DNA of 64,000 nucleotides from Polytrichum commune (taxonomy: Eukaryota > Streptophyta > Polytrichopsida > Polytrichales > Polytrichaceae), in assembly GCA_950295325.1 (NCBI GenBank), contig OX485809.1, positions 23,934,001 to 23,998,000 on the forward strand, given 5' to 3'. Positions within the stretch are counted from its first letter, which is position 1, and every line of letters begins with the position of its first letter. The notes under the pieces are model-generated. The model did no database searches, had not been told where the DNA came from, and saw only the letters and a list, made by a program, of their open reading frames with translations. Below are positions 10,220 through 35,276 of this stretch, in pieces. Position numbers and translations under genes: made by a program.

Positions 10220-10912
10220 TCAATGGAGGAGATCGAGATTTTTGTATGATAAAGCTTCAAAGATGAAAGCATGGAGCCGAGGCGCAATGATAGGTATGTG
10301 CGAACCATCAACAACACTGACAACATATGGTATTTCATGCAAATTCTGAAATTCTTCGGCGAATTTATCTAGGACTGCGGTTGAAGGCCATCTAATGAAT
10401 TTCCTGTGAAGAAGTGCGTTCACGGCAGTATTGAATTGGGAGACTGCCAATTGACTAGTGGAAAGACCAATCCTATACAAATTGGCAATGTTCTGCATGG
10501 AATTACCCGTGGCCAACCTAGACATCGCGACGGCCACCTTAATTTGAACTGGAACTGCATACCGCATGTTCGTATCCTGCCTTTGCAAGAAGTCTGCAAA
10601 CGATGAGCTCAAAAACTCGAATGTTGAGACGTCCATACGCATCCGGCCCTTGAACTCTCTCTCATTAAACGATCCGAGTAGGTTCTGATCGAAAAACCCA
10701 GGTCGTCGCAGACCTCTATCGTGTGCCCAAAGTCGTCGTGGCCGACGTCCGTGCACTATGTTCAAACTGTGCATCGCGAGAGTCATGGACCAAAGTTGTT
10801 GGCAATGCCATACAGAAATCAGACCTTCAACTCCGGACAAACTTTCCAACGCACAATACATTGAGAGCTGGAAGAGAAGATGGAGCATGAGCTTCCGGAC
10901 TTCAACGTCCAT
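10220..10912 (-). mobile_element. PIF/Harbinger-type transposase relic, C-terminally truncated
   Basis: Open frame of about 230 codons from the ATG at 10912. The middle part (RMDVSTFEFLSSSF, then an AVPVQIKVAVAMSRLATG helix region, then SVVDGSHIPI) has the order typical of plant Harbinger nuclear transposases (DDE_Tnp_4). The D of VVDGSHIPI is the first catalytic aspartate. After PRLHA the similarity stops and the frame ends at 10220, so the second Asp and the Glu are missing here; an unseen intron is possible but I found no continuation. No terminal inverted repeats were found around it. It is probably dead. Confidence 0.75.
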
Positions 10913-10942
10913 ATTCACAGTGTGTGTATGAATTTGTGTCAA

Positions 10943-13900
10943 TTTCTAGAGTAGATGCAGCAAAGTGTTGAGCAAAGCTCAAGAAAATGAGCTCCAGAAG
11001 ACTTGTGAGTAGAGAGTGAGCTTCTGGAGGCCTCCAGCCTCTTCTGGCCGCTCTGCCTCTGCAGGCACCGCAGGTGCCCGGAAACTCCCCCAGGGTATCT
11101 CCTCTGGCCGTGCGGCGGCCTGCTGCCCGCTTGGAGGCCTCAAGGTGTCGACCTAGGCTCGGAGCCTAGCCTGGGCGGCCGAAAGGCTTGCCCTCCGTGT
11201 GGCTTCCACCTCAGAGCAAGTAGTCAAAGGCTACTCCTGCTGGTTCTCCTGCAGTGGTACACTTTATAGCCATAACAGACGAGGAATGTTTACAGATAAC
11301 GTGTGTAAAGCTGCCCAAATAGCTAGGCCATGCTTTGGAAATACCTTTACTTTGATTACAACCTTTTACAAGGGACGGGGATAAAGTGGAGAATTTTGAA
11401 ATAGGTCCTAAAATCAAATTAGATTCACTCGCAGATTGCAGGGTGCACTCATTTATTAACCAGATTTATCCTCCAAGTCCAAGTTGGCTGCAGTCAAGAC
11501 CATGTCATGAAGGGTAAGTTGAATGAGTCCAGGAGCCCTGTACGCCCATGCATGATCTGAATTGTGATATGTTGTTGAGCAACTTATCCGCGTTCCATGG
11601 TATTATCAGCTCCTATTGTAGCAGGGTTAAGATTCAATCCAAGTTAAGAGTTCCTACTGAGCCCTGTATATACATAAACCAACTTCTCAATGTCACCCTG
11701 CTAAGTATGACTTATCTTCTTATGTAATTTTCACATAAATTGGTAACATGCAGCAAGTAGTAGGACGTACTTAAGTGGATGCATTGCCAAAGCTCATACA
11801 TACTTATTGTGATATGTTAATGTGGACATAGATTTGCCTGTGTCACATTGACAAGTTCGATCCAATTATATGAGCATGAGAGTCATCTACATATCTCCAG
11901 AAAGAACTTGAAGCTGCAACTACCAATTAAAACTCATGACTATCTATTGCTGAAAGACACAAAGTACAGTCATGCATCGCCTAAACACTAACATGCTTCC
12001 ATGTCCCAAAGCTTGAAGTGGTATCACGTAATATTTTCACAACTTGTGGATCTTGAGGTTTCAATAATGGCTCGTTCATACCTGTGATCCAGTTTTTCAT
12101 TTTGATTTTACTTTACTGTAAATTTTATTTTACTCTTTGCCCAAAAATTATCCTTTCACTTTAATTTACTTTAATTTTTATTTTGGCTTTGATCCAGAAG
12201 TTTCCCTTTGGGAACATCAAAGCAATTGAAATCCTTAGATAGTTTCGGATTTCTCTAACTTATTAGGATTTTATTCATAATCAGAACGCAGTTGTAAGGC
12301 AAGAGCTCCCAAACACAAAGACACCTACTGTAGCCGTAATCATCCATACATTGATATTTCATCGTGCATATTAATATCTAGCTCTGGTGGATTTCATTCT
12401 GCGAACGTACTGAGATTCAACTACATACTACTACACTTGATCTTTTGATGCACGCCCTCACATAGAATATTGTCCCTGTATAAACTATGTATTGTAATTA
12501 GTGTATCCTTGAGACTTACAGATGAGGGTTATATATTTCGGAAACGGAAATTTTATTTTATTATATGTTTTTTAGATTTCATGCATTCCATGAATGGATG
12601 ATCCTCTAGTCAATATCTAGAAGGCTCGCTTCTTCTTGTTTTCAAAATGTCTGGATACCTTCATGTTATAGTACCTTTCAGAAGCTTATCGTACACATAC
12701 AACACTTCTTATAAAGATAAAATAGGCATACATTATATATGGCAGAAGTATTCAGATTCAAAACTTCTTACGTTTATAACCTCCTTGATTTATGTTCAAA
12801 AATCAAGCCTAAATGTATTATAAATAGCTTTTAAAAAGGTCTACACCGTATAACCAAAGTATTTCAAAGCATGTCCCTCTAAAGAATCCGAACTTTAGGG
12901 TAGCAACTTGGTATCTCAATTCAAACTTCCATTTAAACACTTTCACGTTAATATCAAATTCAAGAGCTTTCAATGCATCCGCGGTAGCACTCCTTGAGAT
13001 GATCATATATGCAATCATCATGAACAATAAAATATAAGAATGCAGAACTCCATTGCTCATAACTTTCTTAAATTATATCATTCATTCAAGTCCGAAGTCA
13101 TTTTCAATTGCTATTTCAATGGTCCATAACATGGACCACCCACACATTTTTAAACATGCATCTCGTAAAGCACCGACTTTTACTAGGGTGACTTTGAACA
13201 TCGTTGGAAACTTGCATTTCAACACTCTCATGCCATAGTGCGTTAAGAAACCCCCATGCACACATGTAACACTCTTTGACATGATATTAATGTAGGCAAA
13301 CATTATGGATGGATGAAGTATATAAACACATAACTTGTTTTGCTTATAACTTTACCGATTAACGTCCGAATGTCAAACGCAAAGTCATTTTGGACCGCCC
13401 TCCATGCGGTCCACCTCGTGAAGGCAAAATATTTTAAAACATGAGTTTAAATACCCCTAAACACTTACGTACTTCATACTTCGACTGCTGCGGTTCGACA
13501 TCCGCCAATCTAAGTAGGGTTTAGGGTTTAGATGTTATAGATATTGTTTGAATAGAATTGAGAGCTATGCTAGAAATAGGATATGTTTTACTTATAATTG
13601 GGGTTGTGATACATTACCTACATTATGATTGAATTGATGCTAATAATAGCTAGACTAACATATATTAAGAGGGTGCACTAAAAATATACTTTAGTCCAAT
13701 TATAACAAAGACTGCAATACAACTATTATGACTATGCTAAAATTAGATTGCAACCCCATATAGGTGTGAAACCAAAGGACACACGCAGAAAAAAGAGTTA
13801 TTGTAAAAGGGATTGGAGATTTAGATGAATTACTAAGTTGAGAGCATGACTCAAGAATGCTTCCTTAAGGGTTGATAAGGAAGTGGAAGATTAGTAGAGG

Positions 13901-17434: not shown

Positions 17435-17781
17435 TGTCACGGTATGCGGCGTCGGCGGCCGCATCTTATCCGTTAGGCTTCATCCATTTAGAGTTGGATG
17501 GATGAACCTTAGTTTTGGAAAGTGAGGCTCCTAAGTGAGGAACCTCCTCCTTGGCTTGGCATTCTTGCCAAGTCAAGTCTTGTGAGTTAGTGTGTGGAGA
17601 GAGTTTGTGTGAGGTGTAGATTGCATGATTTTGCAATAAATCTCAAGTTCTTCTTCCCCTACTTACACTCTTGGATTCTCCCTTGGTGGAGTGAGAGATA
17701 GCCGTGGAGATAGCTTGACTAATTGTGTGCATTTGAAGAGAAATTAGAGCTCTTATGAATGTTCTACTCCCTTCCTTCTCA
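17435..17781 (+). repeat. Gypsy 5' LTR
   Basis: Starts TGTCACGGTATGCGG and ends CTTCCTTCTCA (TG...CA). It contains a polyadenylation motif, TTGCAATAAATC, near 17632, as expected for R. Matches 27081-27414. A 12-bp direct duplication around GAGATAGC at about 17697-17722 is absent from the 3' copy. Confidence 0.8.
17559..17573 (+). promoter_or_regulatory. LTR segment complementary to the primer-site candidate
   Basis: GCATTCTTGCCAAGT within the LTR is the exact reverse complement of ACTTGGCAAGAATGC at 17781-17795, which sits at the LTR/internal border. Confidence 0.6.
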
Positions 17782-17795
17782 CTTGGCAAGAATGC
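17781..17795 (+). promoter_or_regulatory. Primer-binding-site candidate (possibly self-primed)
   Basis: The bases next to the LTR end do not match the usual initiator-Met tRNA site (TGGTATCAGAGC). They instead pair over 15 nt with the element's own LTR (17559-17573), as the first transcript bases do in Tf1-type self-priming elements. Mechanism inferred. Confidence 0.5.
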
Positions 17796-18189
17796 TTCAT
17801 TTTTCTATTTTTTTCTCTTTTCTTCTTGATTCTTGACATTTAACACGCAAAGGGATGCGTGGGGGCAAGGAGCGACAAAGTTCCGGAGTTTTGGAGCGGA
17901 GAAAGCCGCGGATTGTTGAAGCAACAAGAAGAAAGAGGTGTGCTTGTGAAGTTTAGACATCACTTTGATTTGTGGTGAGAAATTTTGAATTCTCCACGGA
18001 ATTTTGTGTCATTTGTTCGCTTGCAAGCTTGAATTCACATTATTGAGCTTGTCAAGAATACTCTTGATTTTGATTCAAGTGTGATTTCATTCAAAACAAT
18101 AAACAAAAATAAAAATAAAAGGAGAGAGGAGAGGTGGAGGAGCTCCTCTTGGAGCTCCTGGTTTTGCCGCGGCGGCGGCAAGCCGCCCC

Positions 18190-18370
18190 CCCCCCTCCTT
18201 CCCCCTCCCCCCTAAACCCTAAACCCCTAAACCCCTAACCTACCTACCTTCCTACCTTCCTACCTCCCCCTACCTCCCCCTACCTACCTACCTCTACTCC
18301 AACCCCCCCACCTAGGTCTAGCCTAACCCTGCCCTACCCTACCCCTAGGTCAACGCCCCCCCCACTAGGT
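18190..18370 (+). repeat. C-rich low-complexity tract with telomere-like words in the leader
   Basis: CCCTAAACCCTAAACCCCTA is followed by (CCTACCTT)n-like and (CTACCTCCCC)n-like runs. It ends near CCCCCCCCACTAGG. Confidence 0.75.
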
Positions 18371-18423
18371 TCCTCCCCTGTTGCAGGCTCTATTTTAAAA
18401 AAACATTTTTAATAATAAAAAAA

Positions 18424-18487
18424 TTAGTTTATTGTATTTGTTATTGTATTTTTCAATACACCAACAATACAAAATACAATAAACTAA
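18424..18487. repeat. AT-rich inverted repeat in the gypsy leader
   Basis: TTAGTTTATTGTATT at the left faces AATACAATAAACTAA at the right, giving a stem of at least 15 bp with further partial pairing inside. Confidence 0.75.
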
Positions 18488-19316
18488 GGTATCGAGATGT
18501 CAAGTAAGAAGAAAAACAACAACAAAATGAAATTCTTGGACGTATGAATACCACACTTCGGCGCCAAGGTTGAGGGCACCTTTTCGAGTTTCTTGGCGAT
18601 TGTGGGTTGTGTATACGTTTGGTACAACATCGTTTTGTTGGGAGGGGTGGAGCATTGCGGGAGAGGTTCGCAAATGCATTCGGCAACACGCGGAGGACGT
18701 TGGATTGCGGCCATTTGCGATTGCTTTATTTCGCGTTCATATCGATTTGATAGAGGTACTTGGCATAGTAGGGGATTTTCATTTTTTTTCTTTTTCTTAA
18801 AAGAATTGAGGGGCGGGTTGTGGGCATTGGATTTATTTAGGGGCGGATTGTGATCATTGAATTTATTTAGGACAAATGGTGGGCGTTATGATTCGTTTTA
18901 GACGTATGGTTAGGGGATTGACTGGGGATTGTGTGACGAATGGAATCACCATTCGACTTAACAACAGTTGTTAAGGTCGAATTGTGTTTAACAATACAAA
19001 TTCTAGGGGATAGTTATAGAAGGGGAGTTTATACGTTGTAGTGGGAGCTGAGAGATGTGCTTATGCAATTTTCTTTTCCTAAGCAACAAGGGCTCTTCAT
19101 TTTGACCACCAAGCGCAGGCGGGTGTCGGTTGGCTGCGGTCAATTTATATTTCTGCTTAAGTGTTGTTGGGGGAAGACGATCCAATGCTGAAAATTGCAT
19201 TGTTTTCTGTCTTTTGTTTTGGTACCTTCCCCCGTTGCAGGCTGTATTGCTGGCAGTTGTCGGCATTGCCCCATTTTGTGTTGTTATAGATTGTGATAGG
19301 GTATTGTGGGGGTGAG

Positions 19317-19405
19317 GTCGGAGTAATGACCGACAGGACCCTTGTGTGTGCACCAAGTGGGCGGTGCTCTTATTCCCTTATGGTGAGGCTGGATTGATGA
19401 CCAGC
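19317..19405 (+). other. Two covarying hairpins in the gypsy leader
   Basis: GTCGG-AGTAATGA-CCGAC (19317-19334; the loop is written from the base after GG) and GCTGG-ATTGATGA-CCAGC (19388-19405) lie 71 bp apart in otherwise similar surroundings (GTGAG before, CAG-ACC after). Stem bases changed in pairs while the loop was kept. Confidence 0.5.
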
Positions 19406-19489
19406 AGACCATAAGTTTGGTGGTGTTTGTAGGTGCAAGTTGCCTTTCACCTTTTGATCCTTTACCTTGACACTACATTAGTTTAGATA

Positions 19490-19544
19490 GTTGGCTCCAG
19501 TGACCGAACCCATTGCGGGTTTATAGTTACAACTCGGAGCCAAC
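19490..19544 (+). other. Stem-loop just upstream of gag
   Basis: GTTGGCTCC (19490-19498) pairs with GGAGCCAAC (19536-19544). Between them AACCC-ATTGC-GGGTT forms an inner hairpin. Position before gag would suit a packaging or translation signal. Confidence 0.45.
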
Positions 19545-19594
19545 ATTATCGTACTCCGTCTCCGGCATCATCGGAAGGTCGATCCTCGAACCTC

Positions 19595-20860
19595 TTGGAC
19601 GTTGAACCAGTGGTAGCACTTGACGAGGCTTTTCAGCCTACTTCGGCGTGGGGGACTGCCACTCGGTCTCATGTCCTTTGGGTGGGATCATTTGACAAGA
19701 TGGAGGAGGAGACGCGAGGCGGCATCCGAGACCGATTTTCCGGTCGAACAGGGACCATTTCCCTGCAAGATTGGAAATCTGGTTCAGGACATGGATGAGG
19801 GAGAAGTGTCAACGCAATACCAGTTTCAATGACTGGTATGTGTTTGAGTTACTACCCCAACATTTGAAGCACGAGGCGCTTCAGACTTATGAGCAATAGA
19901 GGGATGCTTATTGGATGGTGTTGCGCCAGGTGGAGCGATACTGGGAGACTCGGGTGGAGCTGGTTTCCGCATTAAAGGAAGGCGCAATTTCTACTTTATT
20001 GGCCGCTCATGTGGTGAAGCCAGAGCAAGCCGAGGGCGTCGTTATGGTGGATGTGGAGGGGAGTTTTCCTAGTGGGCTTAAAGATCAGGCTTCGGCATCC
20101 GCATCTGCGAGTACGTCGAGTCTAAGTCTTCCACTCTCTCGGTATGCCCAGGCTACCCATGCGGCATAAGCCTCTTTAGGGGCTCCGCCTGAATTTGATC
20201 CTTTGCATGAATTCCAACTCCATTTGGAGAAGAAATATGGAGGTTTCCGCCGAGATCAAATACAACGGATCCAGGACTTTCGACGGGAGAAAGAGGACAC
20301 ACCTCGTACCATGTACACGAGGTTGGCGATGTTTGCAAGAGAATCTGGAGGTGTTTTCGCAGAGAGCCAATTGGTGAAGGTTTTTTTTGTCCAAGATTGA
20401 CAAACGCCTCATTGACTTAGCACTACCCATGATCATCATGGATTATGGTGGCCGGGCGACATTTGTAGAGGCTTTCGCCATTGTCGAGCAGTGTGATCGC
20501 GCCTTGTGTCAGCACGACGCCACGGATTTGGTGTCCCTACTAGTAGATTCTAGCAAATCCCGGAAAGTTCCGGTTGCGGGCTTGGCGGAGGCCGAGGTGG
20601 ACAAGACCATGTATTGTTGGTCTTGTGGGCAGGCGGGCCACGCTAAGAAGGATTGTCCTTCAAAGCAAAAGCTAGTCCAAACCATAGGTAATATGAAGCG
20701 GAAACCATTTGTTCCCGCTAAGGATTCGACGAAGGGCACGGGTAAACATTTACCCAAGCAGTTGAAGTGTTCCCATTGTGGGCGGAACAATCATGCGGTA
20801 GATATCTGCTTTGCTCTCCATCCTGAGAACGTCATTCTTCCGACTGGGAGAAGACGTTGG
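19595..20860 (+). pseudogene. Gypsy gag, frameshifted
   Basis: Nucleocapsid/capsid part of the element. Pieces in two or three frames join into a Gag-like chain: a segment around NDWYVFELLPQHLKHEAL, then EFDPLHEFQLHLEKKYGGF, then DKRLIDLALPMIIMDYGG. It ends with two zinc knuckles, CWSCGQAGHAKKDC and CSHCGRNNHAVDIC (both C-x2-C-x4-H-x4-C), near 20617-20820. Stops at 19897 (TAG) and 20167 (TAA) stand where Gln is expected. A T-homopolymer near 20381-20388 causes a 1-nt shift and another shift lies near 20830, just after the second knuckle. The true start is not clear. Gag would form the particle and bind RNA. Confidence 0.7.
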
Positions 20861-21879
20861 AGGCGAAGATTGGAGCCATGGAGGAGAGGTTCAAAAGCTT
20901 GGCGTCATCCGGCCAAATCTTGGCCTCACCGTCTTCCTCTGGAGCTCAGGCTAGTTCTTTCACTCCGGATTATTATATGTTCGGAGCCTCGGGCAAGGTG
21001 GTGAGTTCCGCAGCCGTGTCACAAGTCATACCTTTGACCACAGGTGAGTATGTGGCAAGCTCGCGAGCTCGGGACAATGCCCCCGCGGACCAAATTGGTC
21101 AGGCACGACTACCATTATCTTTTGGATTGGCCGATGCCGTCCAATTTGTTAGTGGTCGTCATCCGAACGATGAGGTTTCAAATTCAACAATTGATGTGGC
21201 GCACACGTTGGCATCCAAGGTGTTGTACACACCTTTGTTCACGGCAATGGAGTACTCGTTGCTAGAGTTCCAACCTGCTAAGGTTTTTCACTTAGCAGGT
21301 AGGATTTTGGAAGGGAAGACATCCTTACCTTCTCTGACCGTGGCTCAAGCCACTACGGACATCCATGCTTCTGAAGATCATGAGGAGGTGGCCAAACGGC
21401 GAGCGAGACTTGCCACAGAGACCATTGCGTCTTTTGATGCACACACCTCAGATGAGAGGGCACCGACCACGTCTTATGACTCACCAGTATCCGCGGGAGC
21501 AGCTGATCTGTCTGATGTCGCTGCTAGATCTGCTCGCAAGCGCCGCGGCATTCGACCCGGTGTTGTGCGTATGGTGAGTGATACCGGCATTTTGGTGGTT
21601 AGTCGCACTGGGAGCAATGCTACTCGGGTTGCTCCCCGTTGTGTGATGATGGATTCAGGGGCACAACCAGTTATGATCGGCAAGAGGCTTGTCCAGGAGT
21701 TGGGGTTGGCGGCCGAGGATTTAGCTCCCTGTCCATTCACCATTGTCACATCCATTGGTCACGTGGAGCGGGCAACGGGTTATACTCAGGAGTCATTACA
21801 ACTTAGCTTCCAAGTGAAACTTGGAGATCTACCCGCACATCTTCTTCTTAGGTGTGCGGTGACAGATGCGACCAACTAG
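20857..21879 (+). pseudogene. Gypsy aspartic protease region
   Basis: A 340-codon frame that continues the Gag chain after a frameshift. Low-complexity Ala/Ser-rich sequence occupies about the first 230 residues. Near 21650 a retropepsin-like active site, VMMDSGAQPVMIG (D-S/T-G-A), appears, followed by a typical LVQELGL helix. It ends in a segment (LRCAVTDATN) that in an intact element should run on into ILVGQQALYPLGF, found one frame away from 21880. A 1-nt deletion at about 21878 therefore separates it from the methyltransferase part. It would cut the polyprotein. Not functional as it stands. Confidence 0.7.
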
Positions 21880-23404
21880 ATATTTTAGTTGGTCAACAAG
21901 CACTTTATCCTCTTGGTTTTGGTTTGGACAACTGGACTGAGGAGGCATGGATCCGACCAGGTTGGTCGGCTGGGGATGGCCGCAGGGAACTTATTCCTGT
22001 GGCTTTCGCGGCGGCCGCGAACATAGCACCATTATCCATGGTTTTTGGATGTGATGCTATTGTGGACACATTGCCTTATGGTTCCGCATTGTTGGAGGAG
22101 TCATTGACATTCATGGGGAGTACAGACGATCAACGGGATATGGCACCTATTGCATTAATGCGCCATCCCAAGGATCCCCTTCGTCCTTGGCGTGATTCCG
22201 CCGAGCTATTCCGGAGGTGTGAGGATATTGTTCACTCTCTCACTCCTAGAACACCGGTCATACCGGATGCCTTCTCGACATTGGCACATCCCATTTTATG
22301 GCAGCCGCCAGACGCGGGGATTACTTTGGTGGAACTGTTTGGGGGCATTGGCACAGGCTTAGCGGCCGTATTGGAGGCTGCCCTCACGGTCAGACGATAT
22401 GTCTATGTGGACAACTCTCAAGTATCCACCTGTGTGGCTTGTCACCATCTTCACCAATGGATGGTATTGTACCCTTAGCAGTTACCTCCAACTGCCATTC
22501 GTGGGTGTTTTTCACGTCTCCCTCGCGATGTCACACTCATCAGTGAGGCCGACTTACGACACTTGGGTCTGGTGGATATGGTAATTGCGGGATGGCTATG
22601 CCAGGGCCATTCACATGCTGGAGCCAGCCGAGTCTAGAGGATCCCAGGTCTAGTCTATTTTGGGACCTCATCCGCCTCATGCAATGGTGGTTTTCCCACC
22701 AACATACCCCTCCAGGGTATATCTTCGAGAATGTACCAGTGTTGGGAAACTCTCGGGATAAGGTGTTGGAAGGTGATCATTATGTTCGTCAACACCTTGG
22801 AGATCCCATTTTTATGGATGCCGCGAGCATTGGTTCTTATGCCCACCGGCCTCGGTGGATTTGGACCAACCTCGCACCGTCATCTACTTTGGCTGCAACA
22901 ATTTCTGCAGTACCTCCACCTTTTGATCAGAGGGTGGATGACATCTTGGATCCAAACCGGACCTCTTTGTCGGTTGTTTGAGATGATTTACCCCCGTTGG
23001 CATTAGTCAACAAAGTGGGGGCACCACGGAAGGCCTTTCCCACCTTTATGACATTTCTACAGTCATTCGCCTTCCGCGATCGGGGGTCGGGTATGGTGTG
23101 GGATGCTACCACCAACATTCATACCAAACCCTTGGCTGACGAACGAGAGCGTGCCATGGGCTTCCGCACTGGTACCACCGCAGCTCCTGGCCTTTCTGAG
23201 GGCCAACGACGCTTCGTATTGGGCCAAGCCATGGATCTCCATACCATGGTGTGGACTGTTAGTTTATGCCTTGCATTGCAACGGCATCATGGTGACCAGT
23301 TATTGCCTCTGGGGGCAGAGGATTCTGGTCAGGGGGCACAACAGTCCACATCCATGGAGGAAGGAATTGATGTTAGGGTTGGAGAAGCCGAACGAATCTT
23401 TTGA
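21880..23404 (+). pseudogene. Linker plus DNMT3-like cytosine-5 DNA methyltransferase domain in the gypsy pol
   Basis: After a linker of about 145 residues, C5-methyltransferase motifs appear in the normal, unpermuted order. Motif I (AdoMet site) is LVELFGGIGTGL (22326-22361). Motif IV is DMVIAGWLCQGHSHAGA, with the catalytic Cys at 22599-22601. Motif VI is FENVP (22724-22738). Motif VIII is AHRPRW (22841-22858). The C-terminal block contains RERAMGF and GQRRFVLGQAMDL (about 23150-23240), resembling motifs IX-X. The unpermuted order separates it from plant DRM enzymes; the motif style (GIGTGL, DAASIGSYAHRPRWIW, terminal RQRLLG-like helix) resembles DNMT3. Damage: Pro of the PC motif is Leu (CTA for CCA), TAG at 22476, a 1-nt deletion near 22634, TGA at 22979. 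Intact relatives could methylate cytosines de novo. Confidence 0.85.
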
Positions 23405-24547
23405 TTCGAGCAGCAGGTCATGGAGGAGCTCCGAACTCAACGAGTTTATACTGCTTTGGTTTCTTCACCTCCGGTGGTGGCTTCATCATCACATATTGGT
23501 GGTGATGAAGAGGGGATGGACTTTATTGCTAGCATGGAGGTTGGGGGCATGGTTAATGCCCCCTCCTCTCATTAGCAGTTAGAATCCATGCCAGCACCAG
23601 GTGGCTCTCTTCTAGTGGAGAGGGAGACCACAAAGTTTGATAATTAGCCATTGGAATTGGGCCCTCATCTCACTGGTGCTGAGGCATGGATAGTACGAGA
23701 GTTTATTCGCTCGTACCGTAGGTATTTTGCTTTTCGCCTTCAGGATCTTGAAGGTTATAAAGGAAAACCCATCCACATTCAATTGGAGGACGACCATCCC
23801 ATTTTTCGGAGACCTTATAGACTCAGTGTTTCCGAGCGGATTGGCGTTCAGGCCCATTGTCGAGAGCTTTTGGCAACAAAACTAATCGAACTTTCCCACG
23901 GGGAGTATGCTTGTGCTACGGTGATGCCATCGAAGAAGGATATCTTTGGCAATTGGACGGAGAAGAGGATGTGTGGGGATTACCGTCCAATTAATCGGAA
24001 GACCAAGTCGGATCGGTATCCCATGCCAATCCCCGAGGAGTTGTTCGATGCCATCGGATTTTCTCGAGTCTTTAGCACCCTAAACTTGAGATCCGGCTAT
24101 CACCAGCTCCCATTGCTTGCGGGAGATCGAGTGAAAACCGCATTCTGGGAAGTTGATCAAGATGGGAAAAATCAATTTTATCATTGGAAGTTTCTTTCAT
24201 TTGGCCTGAAGAATGCACCCACTGAGTTTCAGAGGGTGATGGATTAGGTTCTCTTTGGCTTGTCCTTTGCTCGGTGTTATATAGACGATATGATCATCTT
24301 CAGCACAACACCACAGGAGTATGTGAGGCATCTGCAAGCCGTTTTTGAACGGTTGCAGCGGTGGGGATTGTGCTTGCACCACGGTAAGTGCAAGTTTTTC
24401 CATGACCGACTGGCATATCTGGGGCATATGATTGTTCCAGGAGGTCTTGGTGTACAACAAGCTAAGGTGGACGCCTTGCAGAAGATTCTGGCACCGGTTG
24501 ATGTGCCGAGACTTCGTATTTTCTTGGGCTTGGCGAATTACTATCGG
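23405..24547 (+). pseudogene. Gypsy reverse transcriptase
   Basis: RT domain in the same frame as the end of the methyltransferase. Landmarks: FRRPYRLS near 23808, VMPSKKD, RMCGDYRPINRKT, a YPMPIPEELFD helix start, STLNLRSGYHQ, TAFWEVDQDG, SFGLKNAPTEFQRVMD, and the catalytic YIDD at 24278-24289. Stops: TGA 23402 and TAG at 23573 and 23645 upstream; TAG 24245 after VMD (Gln expected); TGA 24548 in YYR-x-FV (Arg expected). All are one C-to-T step from the expected codon. It would copy element RNA to DNA. Confidence 0.9.
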
Positions 24548-24559
24548 TGATTCGTCAAG

Positions 24560-25228
24560 AACTTTAGCTTGATTGCCAAGCCGCTTACCATTCTCACAAG
24601 CAAGGACCAACCTTGGACTTGGGATCGTGAGCAGCAACATGCATTTGAGACATTGAAGTAGAAACTGGGTACGTCTCCAGTGCTCCGACGTCCGGATGTC
24701 TCCAAATCCTTCCAGTTGCATACGGATTGGAGTTCATTGGGTTTGGGAGCAGTTCTCACTCAGAAAGATGACTTTGGCCGGGAGTATGTTGTTGCTTACG
24801 CGTCGCGAAGCAATAACACGGCGGAGGCCAATTATTCGTCCTATGAGGAAAAAACATTGGCGGCGGTGTGGGCTATTGCCCATTTCCGGCCATATCTCTA
24901 TGGTCAGCGCTTTACGTTGGTGACTGACCATCAGCTGTTACGGTGTTTCATGGAGTCGGATAAACTTACTAGCAAGCTCGCCAGATGGGCTTTGTTGCTC
25001 CAGGAGTATGACTTTGAGGTGGTGCACCGTGCTGGGATTACCAACATGGATGCAGATGGACTCTCACGCAATCCAAGTCCTTCGGATGAGGATTTGACCG
25101 GGGCCAGGTGGCATGGAGATTGTGATCGAGAGGCGGTTCCAGGTTGGCATGCGGCTGCTTACCTCACCTTATTTTCTGGTGGAACTGTTGAGATTCCGAT
25201 ACAGGGCTCGGATGATGAGACTGATTGA
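24560..25228 (+). pseudogene. Gypsy RNase H
   Basis: RNase H domain directly after RT in the same frame. Acidic active-site landmarks are HTDWSSLGLGAVL, SSYEEKTLAAVWAI, TLVTDHQLL and NMDADGLSR, giving the D-E-D-D set. Stops at 24659 (TAG, Gln expected in LK-x-KL) and 25226 (TGA, Arg expected) interrupt the chain. Confidence 0.88.
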
Positions 25229-26508
25229 CCTCAAGCTATTGCGGATATATGGGAGGACCTTCCCGTATTGCAAAAGCTTCAGCAGGGGACTTTTCCTTCG
25301 TCTACCTCGGCAATGGAAAAGGACATGATTGGACATCGAATAACAAGGTTCCGTTGGGAGAACGGTTTGTTATTTCGATTGTGGCCGGATGGGACAAGGC
25401 GTATTGTTCCTAGGCCGGATCAGAGGGCCTCCTTGGTGCGACAAGTGCACGAGGAACTTGGCCATTTTGGCATATGCATGACACATTTGATGTTGCGTGG
25501 CCAATATTGGTGGACTGACATGTATCAGCAGGTGGCTGCCTATGTCGGGAGGTGTGAAGTTTGTGACCGGGTCAGGTCTAGCTTTAACACCTTATCACCT
25601 CAGTTACAGCCCTTACCTATCATGGGATTGGGCTTCTGTTGGTCGTTGGACTTTGCAGGGCCGTTGGTGGTTACACCACGTGGAGCAAAATACGTTTTGG
25701 TGATGGTGGAGCATTTTAGCAAGTGGATTGAGCTTGTTGCTCTACCCCAAAACTCTGCAGAGTTGGCCGCGGCCGCCTTTTTGGATCGTGTGTTAGCACG
25801 TTTTAGAGCACCGGCTGAGGTGTTGACGGACCAAGGGAGGGAGTTCCTTGGTGTTTTTGACGAGTTGTGCACTAAGGCGCTCATAGATCACCGTACCACC
25901 TCTCGGGATCATCCGGAGGCAGATGGCTTGGCTTGAGGAAGTATGGATTACTTCGGGGAAGCCACCGGGATTGGGACCTTATGTTGCCTTGGATTGCTAT
26001 GGGCTATCGATTTAGTAGGCAAGCCTCTTTGGCATCCTACAACCCGTATCAGTTATTGTATGGACGTGAGCCTATTCTCCCGAGTTCTATTCGGGAAAAG
26101 TTAGCTCCTGTTGTGGACTTGGATGACCCAAACATTTAGGCAGAGTGTTTTCAGGAGCGGGCTCAATTCTTCCAGAGGACCATGCCTATGGCCATGGAGA
26201 ATTTGTCCATAGCTCAGCACCGTGACACATTACGTTATGCACGCATTCGCAGTGGTGCTTACCGACCTCAGTTGCGGAGATTCCGGCAAGGGGATTATGT
26301 TTATCTCCAACGTGAGGCACCTACGACATTGGATGTCAGGGCGGGACACACTATCCTTCGGGTGAAGGAGGTGTTGCCGAGTGGTTTGTTGTTGTTGGAA
26401 GGCAAGGATGGCAGGGAATGTCGCGAACATTCCAAAAATTGTGCCCCATGTCATTTACCCATTGAGGGTACAGTTCATCCTGAACTAGCCGTCGTGCCAG
26501 TGGGTCTT
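25229..26508 (+). pseudogene. Gypsy integrase
   Basis: N-terminal zinc site: HEELGHFG supplies His-His and CEVC the two Cys (about 25448-25560). The catalytic core shows SLDFAGPL, LTDQGREF and DHPEADG, the D-D-E residues. A 1-nt shift near 25934 moves the frame; the chain continues with DLMLPWIAMGYRFS and PYQLLYGREP, then after TAG 26137 (Gln expected) ends in a basic, SH3-like part (RRFRQGDYVYLQ, ILRVKEVLPSGLLLLEG). Where chromoviruses would have a chromodomain, this element has a PHD finger. Not functional as it stands. Confidence 0.88.
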
Positions 26509-26660
26509 CCATGTTTTGTGTGTGGAGAGAAGAAATGAACGGCTACTATGCTCTTGTGTGATCAGTGTCAACATGGTTAGCACATGACATGCTTGAAGCC
26601 ACCATTGACTTCTCTACCATCTGTACAGTGAAGTTGTCCTCGTTGTCGAGGATCTTCGGT
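26509..26660 (+). pseudogene. PHD finger at the C-terminus of the gypsy integrase
   Basis: Read in the integrase frame from 26512: CFVC - 11 residues - CDQC - 4 - H - MT - C - 14 - CPRC (to 26646). This is a complete C4-H-C3 pattern with normal spacing, with HMTCLKPPL after the second pair and a Trp position two before the last Cys pair, as in classical PHD fingers. Three stops lie inside: TGA 26536 (Arg expected) and TAG 26578 and TGA 26629, both at positions where PHD fingers have Trp (TGG), so G-to-A changes explain them. PHD fingers mostly bind histone H3 tails, so intact copies could steer integration or the linked methyltransferase to chromatin of a given state. Confidence 0.82.
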
Positions 26661-26962
26661 ACTTGGTGCTTCCACCAATCATACTTAATGATCCTGTGTG
26701 GTTTTCATCATCTTGTGCCTACCCAAATGGAAGATGAGGAGTTATGGCTTAGAAACGCAATCGACATGAGGCAGTGAAATTAATTCTATGGAATCTGATG
26801 GCCAACCATCAGAGGCGATTAACGATGGGGCTCACATTGTACCCAGCCTATAGTTCCTTGGGATGACGTTCGCCACACTAGTTGGTTCCGGAGCAATCCT
26901 TCATTATCCATACCCTTGGGTTGACTTGGTCCTAGCTGTTTGGCGGGACTCCATAGTTAGCT

Positions 26963-26970
26963 AAGGGGGG
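26963..26970 (+). promoter_or_regulatory. Polypurine tract of the gypsy element
   Basis: AAGGGGGG followed by CA and then TGTCG. This is the usual plus-strand primer next to a 3' LTR, but here it adjoins repeat X (26973) rather than the LTR copy at 27081. Confidence 0.7.
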
Positions 26971-26972
26971 CA

Positions 26973-27078
26973 TGTCGAGATGTGTTGTTCATGTGTGACC
27001 TTGCTATGTTTTAGTGTTGTTTGTTAGTGGTGATTGGTACTCGAGCTGTAGTGACACACGATCGGTATTTACACGACA
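26973..27078 (+). repeat. Repeat X, copy A (106 bp, TGTCG...CGACA)
   Basis: Starts TGTCGAGATGTG and ends TTTACACGACA. It is 106 bp and differs from copy B (27415-27520) at five sites, all transitions. It is missing from the 5' end of the element. Confidence 0.85.
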
Positions 27079-27080
27079 AC

Positions 27081-27414
27081 TGTCACGGTATGCGGCGTCG
27101 ACGGCCGCACCTTATCCGTTGGGCTTCATCCATTTAGAATTGGATGGATGAACCTTAGTTTTGGAAAGTGAGGCTCCTAAGTGAGGAGCCTCCTCCTTGG
27201 CTTGGCATTCTTGCCAAGTCAAGTCTTGTGAGTTAGTGTGTGGAGAGAGCTTGTGTGAGGTGTAGATTGCATGATTTTGCAATAAATCTTGAGTTCTTCT
27301 TCCCCCACTTACACTCTTGGATTCTCCCTTGGTGGAGTGAGAGATAGCTTGACTAATTGTGTGCATTTGAAGAGAAATTAGAGCTCTTATGAGTGTTCTA
27401 CTCTCTTCCTTTTC
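27081..27414 (+). repeat. Gypsy 3' LTR copy
   Basis: Matches 17435-17780 apart from about 12 transitions and a 12-bp indel. It lacks the final A and runs straight into repeat X copy B. Confidence 0.85.
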
Positions 27415-27520
27415 TGTCGAGATGTGTTGTTCATGTGTGACCTTGCTATGTTTTAGTGTTGTTTGTTAATGGTGGTTGGTACTTGAGCTGCAGCGACACA
27501 CGATCGGTATTTACACGACA
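27415..27520 (+). repeat. Repeat X, copy B (106 bp), right end of the gypsy element
   Basis: Second copy of the TGTCG...CGACA repeat. The copia leader array resumes immediately after it (GCTATTGGAG). Confidence 0.85.
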
Positions 27521-28090
27521 GCTATTGGAGTTTAAATACCTTCAAAGCTCTCAAATAAATTCTTGAACGCTCAAAATATTCAAGTTAAATGCTTTAAAAT
27601 CTAAACACCTCCAAACCTCTCAAATAAGTCTCTCAAGTCATGTATTATTGAAGTCTAAACACCTTTAAAATTCTCAAAGAAACCCTTGAACACTCAAAAC
27701 ACTCAAGTCAAATGCTTGAAGTCTAGACACCTCCAAGCCTTTCAAATAAACCTCTCAACACTATAGAAATTCAAATCACATGCTCTTGTACCAAACATAC
27801 ATTCAAGCCAAAAAAAAAATACAAAAAATACTTACAACAACAAAATGTGCCCTCAGACATCTCCAATGCTTTGAAGCGCAAACTCCTTAAGATCCACTCT
27901 GCAAACTCAAATGCAATAAAATCTCTAGGCACTTCACTTATATAGTGGGCCCATAACCTATTGGAATCAATAAGAGATAAGATTGCACAAGCATAGACAC
28001 CTATACAAACACATATGAACAATGCTTGGAGTGAGATGGTTTCATGCTCTCCTTGCTTTGCATTTTTTTTTTTTTTTTCTCTTTATTGGT
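27521..28090 (-). repeat. Tandem array, right half, and copia LTR candidate
   Basis: 27521-27780 continues the array broken at 17434, with units carrying CTCAAATAA(A/G)T, CACTCAA and TCTAAACACCTCCAA. From about 27780 the repeats end. A minus-strand TATA motif (CTATATAAG, 27936-27944) and a long A-run (minus strand) near 28062-28080 suggest a copia LTR or leader here; its borders were not found. Confidence 0.55.
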
Positions 28091-28559
28091 TCACACAAAC
28101 AATATGGGATAAGTCTTATCCCTCTTCGGACTAACATGGTAGCCTTATTCTAACCTTATTCTTTCTCATGCTTCTTTCATTATATTTCTATTGACTACGA
28201 GCAATCTAATGCTCTACCCTCTACATCATCAACCACAAAGCTTGGACAACGCAACAATTTCCAATACAAAACATGTCGACAATCACTCCATAATGACCAT
28301 CCAACTCATGCTATAAGCTACGACCCAACACCATAATGGCCAAAATACTATCAATACACATAACCATCCCTCACATCCATAATATGCACACACATGTAGT
28401 CAAATCCCACAAAGAACATACACCACATTATAAAGTGAATCCACAATATCCACATAGACACCTATCCTATTAAGCCCCCCCTGCCCCCCCCCCCCCCACA
28501 TCACCACATCAAAATCTCCAATACATGGAAAATCACCCCAAAAATAGGCGTACCCCCCT

Positions 28560-30186
28560 GAAAATACCATCATGGCACCAATACCAACTACATGCTACCA
28601 CACCCACCCTCTCAAATTCTATCCACAACAATGCATGTACATAGATGGATCCTTCATCCCCCCACCAAAAAGCTCCAAAGGTCATATAGAAGGCAACACC
28701 ATAGGATTCGGGGTATACAACCCCAACAACACCACCCAATATCAAAACGATGACCAAGCTACCAAAACATCCTACGAGCAAAGCTCAATGCCATGCTTAT
28801 TGCCATATAAAACTATACAAATTGCCCAAGTGGAGACACACATATTCACATACAACATCAACATTATATTTCTCATAAGTAATCCCATAAGGCACATGTC
28901 CCATTGTCCTCACAACACCGCCACCTAGACAAACTACTTATAGTAGCATTGTACACCAAATATATTGGACCCCACACAAAATCTCCAGACACAAAGTAAG
29001 AGTCCACACATTGGCATTGTCGGAAACGAAATAGTAGACACACTAGCAAACAAGGGAACACACAAAGACAAACCCACCACCACACCACCCCTTACTGGCT
29101 AGCAAGTTGCCCGACCACCACACATGATGGAGCTATCAAATGACTATCAAAGTTGTGTGGAGTTCACAACTTCCACACGTTCATAAATAATAAACACCAT
29201 AACAAAGAATCCAATGTTGCTAGAAACAAATTCCCATATGTTCACAAATGGCTATCAAATGACCAAATTATCCACAAACTCTCCAACCACTTCTGGAAGG
29301 CCACGGGCATAACCGATACACAAATCACGCAAACACTAAAATTCCGATACACCTAATGCATGGGAAACCCACATAAAAAAAAAAAATTGTATGGCCCCTC
29401 ACCCACCCAAACCCCAATTGCACCCTATATCCCAACAATGCCAATGACACATGCCCCCACCTCCTATCCACATGTGAGACCCAACATATAAAAGGCCTGA
29501 GAATATCGCGCCACAACAAAGCAGTGTACCTCATTGCCCAAACACTACAAGCCAACAAATTCACTCAGTTCTTCACAATAATCAACGCATGGAACTTCAA
29601 CAACAAGCCACCAAACTCAACAATCCTATAGTGGCTACTTATATGCACCCGTGCACATACAATGCCAATGCCAAGCAAAATGAAGACCATATATCCTATA
29701 TATGCATACTAGGAGTCCCACACCAAAACCAAACACCAATAATCCCCTCCCCAACCACATAGTTCAATTCATAGAATTCAAAAACTACCACGATAGATTC
29801 CATGAACAAGCACTCGAACATAAACACACCAAATACGACCCACTAATCAACATCCTACAAAGAAAACCGGATGGAATATAAAGCCCCTCATCACCATTAC
29901 AACAAGGGTGAGAAGAGCCATACATGAAGACTCTATATATAAGAAAACTAACCAAACTTAACATCCCATAATCCAATATTAAAAAACTCATAAAGAAATA
30001 CACCAAAACACCATCAAATATCTCACATATTTAGTCATCAAGAAAACAAAACAAAACAACAAAAAGCACTTGTCCTCCCCCCCCCCCCCCCCCCAACATT
30101 GTATAACTATTTTGACAACAAAGCCCACCTCCAAAAAATGCGCATAACATCTTATGTTGCATTGTGGATAACCACAATCAATGTAA

Positions 30187-31260: not shown

Positions 31261-31299
31261 GGCAAGAAGAAAGTAGGTTAAGTGTAAGGAGGGAGAAAA

Positions 31300-34200
31300 A
31301 TGGCGAGTGAGGATGAAGTGGTAATAACGACGGAGGTAAAGGAGGTAGCAGTAGTAGAAGAAGAACACTCAGACCCGGTAACGAAGTCGTTAGAGTCAGT
31401 TCCGTGTAGGAAGGAGCGGCTGCAGAAAGTGATAGATGGCCTGGAGATACAAAGAACGGCAATCGTGAATTGCACACTAGAGTGGAAAGAGTTCGAAGAA
31501 TATTTTACGGAACTCGAGACAAATTTGCAGACGCGGCTTGCGGATTTGATAGCTAAAGAAAAGGCATACGAGATCAAGTACACGGAGATGAAGGAATCTC
31601 TTAGGAAAAGAGAAGAGGCTGTGTCTTCACGAGAGCAAGCCATGCTCGCTAGAGTGCAAGAACAGAAAGACTCCGCCATCGCTTCCCTCTTTGAAGAGAA
31701 GCGCAAATGGCTGGACGAACGATCTCGCATTGAAGCCGAAGCTCCATCCAAAGCCCCTACGGATGTCACTACTACTCCCTGTAATCATCCAGAGCCGTCC
31801 GATGCAGCAGCAATTAATGGCTCTCATCAAGCTATGGAAGTAGATGTCGCAGCAGCAGCTCCCAAGATGCCTGAGCATGATGGAGTTGCTGCAAACGGGT
31901 CAGCTATTGCTAGAAAGAGCGATACCAACATCACTACTACATCCATTTCCACCCCCAAAGCAGTAGTAGGAGTACCTGAAGTACGGGTGCGCCCGCAGCT
32001 GAAGGCTCTATGTGAGAGTATGGATGGTGATGCATTAAGGAAATACATTGTAGACCATCGGAAGGATGTGGGAGCATTGAGGAATGAGCTTCCACATGCG
32101 CTGCAATGTGCTATTGACCCTGTGCGCATGGTGCTAGGGGCTTTGGAAGGCTACCACCTGCCAGAGCCGGTCAGTGTTACAACTACAATCACTACTACCA
32201 ATAATCCTCCTGCTGGTTCTACTGAGAAGGATAAGGATTCCGGGGCCTCGGCTAACCGTCGGGCCTGTATTCTTCTTTTGGAATGTCTGTCTGTGGTTCT
32301 AGCAGACCCAGTGTTGGGAGCAGATTTCCCGATTGTTCCCGCCAATGTTAAGGAGTCGGCCAAGCAGGTTGCAAACAGTTGGAAGTCCAAATTGAACATG
32401 CAAGGCGATGCCACTGGCAATTCTCTGGATGCCCAGGCTTTTCTCCAGCTCTTGGCTACCTTTGGAATTGCTACGGAGTACAATGATGACGAGCTGTGCA
32501 AACTTGTCACCGCTGTTGCCAGGCGCAGGCAAACCCCTGCGCTCTGCCGGTCCCTTGGACTATCTGCCAAGATACCAGGTTGGTGTCTACTCTTCTTTAC
32601 GTTAGTTAGCTGCCTTAAATTTAGAGGCCCATTGCAGCCTCTATCTCATCAGTCGCATGGATTCTCTTGATGAATTTGGTGCCACCCCTCTTACCTATCC
32701 CCCCCACTCCCAAAGTAGGAGCAGCAATTTTAATTGCATTCCTCCGTTGACATTGACACCCACATACATTTCCTCAACTATCATTGTCATCATCATCGCA
32801 AACATTTCTTGTGTTGGATGTTTAAAGCCTGTTGTGGGAGGCTTTCCTCTTTGCTTCACATACATATGACTTTGAGCGCACCTGAACATCATCATTGGTC
32901 ATCTCTAGATTCTAAGAACTCCATCCCAGGACTCTCCGAGTTGACAACCAACCCACAAGCTTTATGGAAGAAACTTCAGAAAGACGTCTTTTTTCCTCTT
33001 CTCTCCTCTCCGTTTTCCAAAAGATGTCAAGGTGATATGCAATTCTTTGAGTGTCCCGGGTAAGACGTAATTGTAACCTGTCTTCAGCAACACGACAATT
33101 GCGCTTGAGCTTCTTGGCGGGCTTTCTTGATATCCACTACAACCATTACATTAGTTCGGCCGATCACTAACGTTATAAGTTTATATGTCAAAGCGTAACC
33201 CATTAAGTGTGTGCATACCCTGCGTTCAGCATGGAGCAGGTTAGTGAAACCTCCTGCCTTTTGGCCTTCTGTAAAAGTAAGTTTCTGGGTGGTGGGTTGT
33301 ATTTGCCTTTGTCATATGCCGGAATCTCTATGCGACCAGATATTTTGATTATATTCCCGAAGTTGATCAGGCCTATTCCTTTAACGCATAGAGCACCATC
33401 CTATTATTGTTTGTTGAGGCTTTTCTCCCTTTGTCAGAACTACTATTTGAGAAGACGTTAATGAAGGGATAGTTTGAAGGGAGCAGCCATGCAGCTGTGA
33501 CCTTACGGACTTCTCTTTACGGTTCAAAGGGCTCCTTGGATAGAATTGATTGCCGTTGGAAGTTTTCCTGGCTATAGTCGAAGTAAAGTTACATTTGGAG
33601 GTCTGGCAGCGATGTATTTACGTTTTGCAGTACTTCACCATTGTCTGTTTTTATTACAGACATTGTGGACAGGCTGGCCAAAGAAGGGAAGCAGATTGAG
33701 GCTCTCTCATTTGCACATTCATTCGGAATAATGGATCGTGTACAACCCATTCCTTTGTTGAAGGCTTATCTCAAGGAAGCTCGTAGAACTGCACAGTCTA
33801 TTCTCAAGACTGGCAACAATTCAGCAGCTGCACAGGTAAACTACTGATTAACTTAGAGCTAAATAAATTGAGAGTGTGTATCTATGTACTTGATAACCCT
33901 TTTCTTGATTGGGAGCACTGCGGAAGTTTCTGGTCGATTCACAGATAAGATGCAATCTGGTTGTAATTTCTGATATAAGTTGTGCTACGAAATTGATAAC
34001 ATGATAATGTCTGAATCTTTTTGAGCTGGGAAACTATTGAAGTCACTGCGTAGTGGAGCATGATTTGGGAACTCCCTTGTATAATCAATTCATGAGAGCA
34101 ACAGTGTGGTCAAGACAGGAGTGATCTAGTAACGATTAACGTCCTGAGATTGTCTGCATTTGATTATTCTCATCTTGATGGGATTTATTGTGTACAACGT

Positions 34201-35276
34201 ATATAGTGAGTTTCACTGGCTGGTGCTGTGAGATGTGCGATAGAAAGAAAAACTCTTGGAAGTGATCGTGCTTCCAATCATGTCATGTTGGTAGAAGGGG
34301 GTTGTGAGAGGAGGGTTGGGCTTTTGGTTTGGAAGAAAAGAAGCTGCTTCAAGTAATTTAGACCAAAGAGAGACATTAGGATACTTGGACCATGGAACAG
34401 AGTTCGAAACTCCTGCTGTGGAGTACATCTATCCCACTCGGACCTTTAACGGTGTTTGATGCATTCTTTTATGGAAATTCTATAGTTCTTGATTCATTCT
34501 GAGTGACCTGTAATCACTTCATTTCTGGGCTTGATATTGACTCTTTCTGGGGCGCTGTTTACAGGAGTATTTGTGGGCTCCAATCCTTGACTGGGTACGA
34601 GTGACTATTCTACTCATTTTCTGGGAGGCCACTTCAAGTTATCTTAGCAAATACACATTTCTCCTTTTTTCAGATTTACGAACTGATTCAGAAAAGACTC
34701 ACGTTGCCGAAATTTGTCTGCTTTTTGCAGAATGATGCAACCATGAAGGAGCTGGCCGCACTCAAGGCCGTGCTCAAGTGCATTGAGGAGTACCAGTTAG
34801 AAAGCCAATATCCATCGATGCCTCTACAAAAGCGTGTAGTGCAGCTTGAGAAGGCCAAATCAGATAGGAAGAGGGCTGCAGTGGCTGTGAAGGCTCAAAC
34901 CAAAAGACCTCGGGCTAGCAATGGTACTGGAGGGGGTTACGGGGGTAATGCAGGTTCTAATAACGACAGCCGAAGTTATTACCGTGGCCCCTCAGACAGG
35001 GGTCAATATGGGGGTGTAGGTGTAGCAGCCTACAGTCTCCAATCACAAAATACCTATGATCGTCGTGGCCAAGGGGGTTACTCTACAACCTATGCAGGTG
35101 GGAACCGTAGCCCAGTTTCTCTCTCCAGCTCTTACTTGTACTCAGCTGATGGTTTAGGTTCACCTGTGTATGGGTCTTCAGGTTACACTAATCCTTCCAA
35201 CACATACAGTAGTTATCAGTTTGGTAGTGGCCTGCCTCCCCCTCCCCCGGCATATCAGGCTTCATTTCTTCACTGA
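31300..35276 (+). CDS. FRIGIDA-like protein
   Basis: Three exons: 31300-32578, 33660-33835 and 34731-35276, all with GT-AG borders and matching phases, giving 666 residues. The N-terminus (about 25-150) is charged and likely coiled coil (KERLQKVIDGLEIQR, LRKREEAVSSREQAM). A low-complexity linker precedes the FRIGIDA domain (about 230-530): RPQLKALCESMDGDALRKYI, ACILLLECLSVVL, LLATFGIATEYNDDELCKLV, LCRSLGLSAKIPDIVDRLAK, and IPLLKAYLKEARR, which crosses exons 2-3. The tail (about 560-666) is Gly/Tyr/Ser-rich and ends in PPPPPAYQASFLH, as in several FRL proteins. Arabidopsis FRIGIDA acts in a nuclear complex that activates the flowering repressor FLC; the role of FRL proteins outside flowering plants is unknown. 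Introns are 1081 and 895 bp. No damage is seen. Confidence 0.92.

What the first reader, a model, noticed from the sequence alone, without database searches (positions are those of the whole stretch)
21880..23404. A Ty3/gypsy retrotransposon that carries a DNMT3-like DNA methyltransferase between protease and reverse transcriptase
The sequence shows C5-methyltransferase motifs I (FGGIGTGL), IV (catalytic Cys in GW-L-C-QGHS), VI (FENVP), VIII (AHRPRW) and IX-X in unpermuted order, in the frame that continues into RT. Known: retrotransposons that acquired cytosine methyltransferases were described in dinoflagellates and charophyte algae (de Mendoza and co-workers, 2018), with de novo CG methylation shown for some. 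I know of no description from a land-plant genome with this gene order. Inference: the element could methylate its own or others' DNA, to hide from or to manage host silencing. Order of motifs excludes DRM-type enzymes.
Basis: partly seen in the sequence, partly recalled or inferred. Interest (0 to 1): 0.93.

Follow-up and report, generated by a model that had tools for sequence, protein, structure and literature searches.

The report
Plant retrotransposon family carrying DNA methyltransferase
A plant DNA segment holds the broken remains of a retrotransposon that carries its own DNA-methylating enzyme; intact relatives suggest the enzyme is a kept part of the element, extending to land plants something previously reported in algae.

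Summary
Between protease and reverse transcriptase of a decayed Ty3/gypsy element (17435-27523, + strand) lies a DNMT3-type cytosine methyltransferase (MT, 22302 to about 23280), spread over two frames. This copy is dead: 15 premature stops, 6 frame changes. It is not a one-off: a protein search found 143 MT relatives; of 15 homologues of the protease region 13 carry the MT and 2 end at or before it; soil contig L003 holds intact ORFs. Named relatives include the liverworts Marchantia polymorpha and Calypogeia fissa. Profile and fold comparisons rank DNMT3A/B/C first. The MT is about as conserved as the protease; the catalytic Cys is kept in 78 of 80 rows. Closest known: KnitGypsy-Dnmt3 of Klebsormidium. 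A new variant of a known kind. Self-methylation of cDNA is the likeliest role, untested. The host genome could not be searched.

The parts
17435..17780 (+). Repeat A1 (5' end of the element, starts TGTCAC)
   Evidence: aligns to 27080-27414, 323 identities, 12 mismatches, 12 gap positions
19520..20827 (+). gag remains, frames broken; CCHC zinc knuckle about 20612-20662
   Evidence: tblastn with L003 ORFs; PF00098 E 1.8e-4
20839..21876 (+). Gag linker and aspartic protease (PR match 21643-21804, DSGA)
   Evidence: PF13650 E 0.0036 (below gathering)
22302..22631 (+). DNMT3-type MT, N-terminal half: motif I FGGIGTGL and motif IV GW-L-C-QGHS; one premature stop
   Evidence: 61% to L003 over the whole 21873-22631 alignment; stop
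22634..23404 (+). DNMT3-type MT, C-terminal half and start of its tail: FENVP, AHRPRW, ERERAMGF, LGQAMD; core ends about 23280; two stops
   Evidence: (57% to L003 over 22634-23458)
23573..23581 (+). In-frame TAG CAG TTA between MT and RT, fits the UAG-CARYYA leaky-stop consensus
   Evidence: L003 has TAG CAA TCA at the same junction; consensus from PMC2754532 (passage)
23648..24550 (+). Reverse transcriptase, broken by stops
   Evidence: PF00078 E 2.6e-9 and 1.9e-12; 83% to L003 ORF2 over 23576-25933
24662..25228 (+). RNase H
   Evidence: PF17917 E 1.6e-35
25229..26490 (+). Integrase (H2C2 zinc-binding and rve core); frame change near 25930
   Evidence: PF17921 5.6e-15, PF00665 3.6e-13
26512..26646 (+). 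Remnant of a C-terminal PHD finger (stops inside)
   Evidence: aligned to L003 ORF2 residues 990-1034, which match PF00628 at E 4.3e-10
26963..26971 (+). Polypurine-tract-like AAGGGGGGC
   Evidence: sequence
26973..27081 (+). Repeat B1
   Evidence: 103 of 109 identical to B2
27081..27414 (+). Repeat A2
27415..27523 (+). Repeat B2 (3' end of the element, last bases ..CACGACAGCT)

Best explanation
A dead copy of a family of Ty3/gypsy retrotransposons of green plants that keeps a DNMT3-type cytosine-5 methyltransferase as a regular polyprotein domain. The gene order is Gag-PR-MT, then an in-frame, probably leaky UAG stop, then RT-RNase H-integrase-PHD. In live relatives most ribosomes would stop after the MT, so the MT would be made in Gag-like amounts and carried into the particle, with less RT-IN-PHD made by readthrough. 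Most likely the MT methylates the element's own new cDNA de novo, before or at integration, so that daughter copies enter the genome already marked like host DNA, while the PHD finger on the integrase steers insertion by reading histone H3 tails. Shown: domains, order, DNMT3 likeness in sequence and predicted fold, conservation, intact ORFs in L003, leaky-stop consensus. Inferred: readthrough, packaging, DNA activity, target and benefit.
Against: The enzyme of the closest known element (KnitGypsy-Dnmt3) showed no activity in yeast, which its authors call inconclusive. CpG observed/expected is 0.70 for the element and 0.59 for the MT, against 0.66 and 0.46 in the two flanks, so there is no clear footprint of self-methylation. 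The MT changes faster than RT/RH/IN (pN 0.24 against 0.07-0.09), so it is kept but less tightly. The stop context was seen in the DNA of only two, homologous, elements, and the same 9-base pattern occurs 5 times in the 64 kb window. One relative (P0144) has MT and RT in one ORF without the stop. PHD target unknown.
Confidence: 0.55

Rival explanations
1. The MT is kept for counter-defence rather than for marking its own DNA: it sequesters or mis-directs host silencing (for example by pairing with host DNMT3), or methylates host DNA broadly.
For: The predicted fold matches DNMT3 catalytic domains, many of them solved as complexes or oligomers (titles); Gag-side placement would give excess protein.
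Against: Sequestration would not need the catalytic Cys, yet it is kept in 78 of 80 rows. K. nitens, which carries such elements, has a land-plant-like methylome (PMC5890265).
Confidence: 0.2
2. The MT modifies RNA (element RNA or primer tRNA) during particle assembly.
For: It sits next to Gag and the zinc knuckle; de Mendoza and co-workers raise RNA methylation for the LINE type.
Against: The profile is nearer to DNMT3A/B than to the tRNA enzyme DNMT2 (E 1e-14 against 0.002 or worse).
Confidence: 0.1
3. A one-off insertion of a host methyltransferase gene into a single element copy.
For: Only one copy is in the window; the host genome could not be searched.
Against: The MT follows the protease in L003, in Marchantia P0140 and in many contig proteins.
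Confidence: 0.02
4. The repeat layout is an accident: an ordinary LTR element (LTR = B+A) that lost the 5' B and has a second, truncated LTR piece behind it.
For: The polypurine-like tract abuts B1, as expected for the start of an ordinary 3' LTR; only one linear copy was seen.
Against: Near-complete A and B units and the A-coding-B-A-B layout that is stated for KnitGypsy-Dnmt3 (PMC5890265 legends).
Confidence: 0.25

Closest known systems
KnitGypsy-Dnmt3 of Klebsormidium nitens (de Mendoza et al. 2018, PMC5890265; parts 1-4 of 7 read)
   Same: Ty3/gypsy element with an unpermuted DNMT3-type MT in the polyprotein; purifying selection on the MT; repeats laid out as in DIRS elements (A-coding-B-A-B)
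   Different: Charophyte host; PHD has 0 occurrences in the paper's main text and no leaky stop is mentioned in the parts read; sequence kinship untested because no row named as K. nitens was among my listed hits
SymbioDIRS-Dnmt3 and SymbioLINE-Dnmt of Symbiodinium (PMC5890265)
   Same: Retroelement carrying a cytosine methyltransferase; SymbioDIRS enzymes methylate CG de novo in yeast
   Different: Tyrosine-recombinase DIRS or LINE elements, described as independent acquisitions; here a DDE integrase, PR and PHD
Animal DNMT3A/DNMT3B
   Same: Best profile and fold match of the MT
Chromoviruses (chromodomain gypsy elements; recalled, plus listing of PMC2864245)
   Same: Gypsy integrase with a chromatin-reader domain at its C-terminus
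   Different: PHD finger instead of chromodomain, and an added MT

Membership tests
Ty3/gypsy LTR retrotransposon | Gag zinc knuckle, PR, RT, RNase H, integrase in the order PR-RT-RH-IN | tested here: met
   (PR match below its gathering score)
Ty3/gypsy LTR retrotransposon | Complete LTR at both ends, tRNA primer site, target-site duplication | tested here: inconclusive
   A1 only at the 5' end, B-A-B at the 3' end; only one primer pattern (Met-tRNA) tried, none of its 8 matches near A1; no clear duplication by eye in the flanks printed
DNMT3 family | C5-MT motifs I, IV, VI, VIII, IX/X unpermuted | tested here: met
DNMT3 family | Nearest to DNMT3 among solved C5-MTs by profile and fold | tested here: met
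   (relatives, not the broken window copy)
DNMT3 family | Placement inside a DNMT3 clade with host plant DNMT3 genes | not tested
   no host DNMT3 sequence was at hand; the tree holds family members only
DRM (rearranged) methyltransferase | Motifs permuted (VI-X before I-V) | tested here: not met
   order I-IV-VI-VIII-X in the window, L003 and the liverwort proteins
KnitGypsy-Dnmt3 | DNMT3 in the gypsy polyprotein ORF | tested here: met
KnitGypsy-Dnmt3 | DIRS-like repeat layout A-coding-B-A-B | tested here: met
   one copy
KnitGypsy-Dnmt3 | Sequence kinship with the K. nitens elements | not tested
Active DNA methyltransferase | Methyl transfer to cytosine | not testable with these tools
   needs an assay; catalytic Cys kept in 78 of 80 rows; the window copy has stops and L-C in motif IV

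The most novel reading that the evidence does not exclude
A green-plant-wide lineage of 'writer plus reader' retrotransposons: DNMT3 packaged at Gag stoichiometry through a leaky stop, and a PHD histone reader on the integrase. Particles would methylate their own cDNA and insert by chromatin state, an element-borne split of the DNMT3-ADD logic, kept from algae to liverworts, with the MT also carried between RNase H and integrase in a separate clade.
Probability: 0.35. Interest if true: 0.85.

Novelty: new variant of a known kind. Interest (0 to 1): 0.62.

Why it matters
DNA methylation is a main way plants silence transposons, so an element family that keeps its own DNMT3-type methyltransferase poses a direct question: does it mark itself, hide, or disarm the host? 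The only gypsy precedent that I found in print is one charophyte. Relatives in Marchantia polymorpha put the question into a genetically tractable land plant, where it can be tested with knock-outs and methylome data. The probable leaky stop and the PHD finger give concrete, testable mechanisms.

Tried and rejected
One-off insertion: rejected. DRM, DNMT1/CMT or bacterial Dcm origin: disfavoured by motif order and by profile and fold ranking; no tree with those families was built. Relatives in viral contigs: two distant MTs only (31 and 33% identity); none with ORF2. In genome contigs the only close match was L003, filed under a cyanobacterial MAG; the other 4 loci are Streptomyces, 32-55% in the best segment. 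I take L003 and P0008 (labelled Obscuribacterales) to be mis-binned eukaryotic DNA (inference). The first fold model, from 15 sequences, had pLDDT 50 and was dropped. CpG depletion as a mark of self-methylation: not clearly seen. Met-tRNA primer site: none near A1. dN/dS for the MT could not be given because synonymous sites are saturated. P0156 and P0157, PR homologues without PF00145, end at or before the MT start, so they neither support nor contradict. The PR search was itself started from an MT-bearing element and limited to proteins of about 640-2030 aa, so distant or short MT-less relatives could be missed. The motif UAG-CARYYA also occurs elsewhere: 3 on + and 2 on - in 64 kb, one of them a premature stop inside the MT (22476). 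A chromodomain was not among the Pfam matches of ORF2 at E<=0.1; a PHD finger was. For one search, 15 of the long proteins were chosen and P0130, P0134, P0147 and the liverwort rows were not compared by region; proteins whose MT end did not fit the text pattern (for example P0131, P0141, P0145, P0153) dropped out of the tail count. For the tree, rows that did not span most of the MT were dropped (58 of 159 kept, plus the window piece).

Literature: searches (one search was on readthrough). I saw listings, capped at 20 of 74, 20 of 196 (15), 0 of 0 (19), 2 of 2 (20), 20 of 95 (39), 20 of 34 (40), 5 of 5 (71) and 22 of 24 (87). By title and abstract start none of the listed papers is about a land-plant DNMT-bearing retrotransposon. 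Passages only: PMC12344493 ([quoted passage not shown] The library lacks most subscription journals, and supplements were not read.

Full report
WHAT IS THERE. The window holds one Ty3/gypsy-type element on the + strand, 17435-27523. Translated alignment with the intact relative L003 gives gag (19520-20827), linker and protease (20839-21876), a linker and the MT N-terminal half (21873-22631), the MT C-terminal half and tail (22634-23458), RT-RNase H-integrase (23576-25933), and integrase end plus PHD remnant (25930-26658). Pfam finds the zinc knuckle, RT, RNase H and integrase above their gathering scores and the protease below it. The copy is dead: 15 distinct stops in the aligned frames (16 rows, one listed twice; one of the 15, at 20375, lies where two frames align) and 6 changes of frame between aligned pieces. 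The conserved P-C of motif IV reads L-C. All 18 mismatches between its repeats (12 in A, 6 in B) are transitions (read off), as expected of methylated DNA decaying, though that is an inference.

NOT A ONE-OFF. L003 (CADCWO010000201.1, 9285 bp, 127 identical bases at its ends) carries intact ORFs in the same order. Searching with the protease region only gave 15 proteins, 13 with PF00145; the other two (932 and 852 aa) end at or before the MT start. Among 35 relatives of L003's MT, those named are Marchantia polymorpha (P0140, P0142, P0143, P0145, P0146), Calypogeia fissa (P0138) and, weakly (40% over a quarter of the query), Closterium (P0155); the longest contigs of P0138, P0140 and P0143 are 8.8-27 Mb. 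P0143 runs from the MT into an RT-like signature (it ends TDRRMCGDYRPINR). P0106 bears a locus name that I recall as Spirogloea. In a quick tree of 59 rows (58 relatives and the window's C-terminal MT piece) the window piece groups with P0001 and P0006 (SH-aLRT 100), and the six liverwort rows fall, with P0137 and P0139, on one side of a branch (99). The root is unknown.

CONSTRAINT. Against L003, 15 long proteins are 55-92% identical in the MT and 59-96% in the protease, but 24-85% in the linker before and 25-72% in the tail after the MT; gag gives 46-89%. Between L003 and the window, pN is 0.24 in the MT, 0.09 in RT, 0.08 in RNase H, 0.07 in integrase and 0.16 in the PHD, with synonymous sites near saturation (pS 0.66-0.75 in these regions). 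The MT is held by selection, though less tightly than RT and integrase.

(a) The MT is followed by an in-frame UAG with CAGUUA in the window and CAAUCA in L003, both fitting CAR YYA, which PMC2754532 (passage) names as the essential 3' context of the leaky TMV stop. Of 28 proteins over 600 aa whose MT end fits a text pattern, 24 end 30-175 residues after it (P0143, at 175, is already in RT) and 4 run on 726-1023 residues, as a stop at this junction would give in the Gag-PR-MT type; P0144, with MT and RT in one ORF, is an exception. (b) A PHD finger ends ORF2 (PF00628 4.3e-10) and is present with stops in the window. It also occurs in P0150, P0151, P0153 and P0154. (c) In P0150 and P0153 the order is RT-RNase H-MT-integrase-PHD; P0151 and P0154 show MT-integrase-PHD. 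These four form one side of a branch (99), with MT 34-37% and RT/IN 39-45% identical to L003. Either the MT moved within the element or it was taken up twice. (d) The repeats read A1-coding-B1-A2-B2, the layout that PMC5890265 gives for DIRS elements and for KnitGypsy-Dnmt3 (legends).

HOST. A FRIGIDA-like gene lies at 31288-32667 (PF07899 7e-59), which points to a plant; the species is unknown. The genome search did not complete in ten tries.

KNOWN AND NEW. PMC5890265 (parts 1-4 of 7 read) reports DNMT3 in a gypsy Pol ORF of Klebsormidium nitens, with purifying selection, DIRS-like repeats and inconclusive yeast activity. Its main text has no occurrence of Marchantia, moss or PHD; its supplements were not read. 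My searches (listings only, several capped) showed no land-plant case. So the kind is known; what is added is the land-plant range, the PHD finger, the Gag-side position before a probable leaky stop, and the second gene order.

MECHANISM. Most likely a Gag-PR-MT protein packaged in the particle methylates new cDNA, and integrase-PHD places it by chromatin state. This is inference. CpG content does not clearly support it (element 0.70, MT 0.59, flanks 0.66 and 0.46), and I saw no activity reported for a gypsy-borne DNMT3.

Noticed in passing
window 31288-32670 and 34605-35276 (+): FRIGIDA-like gene (PF07899 on 31288-32667); the second ORF may be a later exon, which was not tested.
   Followed up: partly
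window 10220-10945 (-): ORF that looks like a PIF/Harbinger-type transposase piece (by eye).
   Followed up: no
window 60719-61492 (-): ORF that looks like an amidophosphoribosyltransferase exon (by eye).
   Followed up: no
window 18210-18239: Short CCCTAAA (plant-telomere-like) units and C-rich runs in the 5' leader of the element.
   Followed up: no
window 28001-30000: Strong strand bias: GC skew -0.45, AT skew +0.27.
   Followed up: no
window 62707-63023 and 63268-63593: Tandem pairs with periods of 171 and 173 bp, satellite-like length.
   Followed up: no
L003 and protein P0008: Plant-type retrotransposon DNA filed under bacterial MAGs (Synechococcales; Obscuribacterales), probably mis-binned eukaryotic sequence.
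   Followed up: partly
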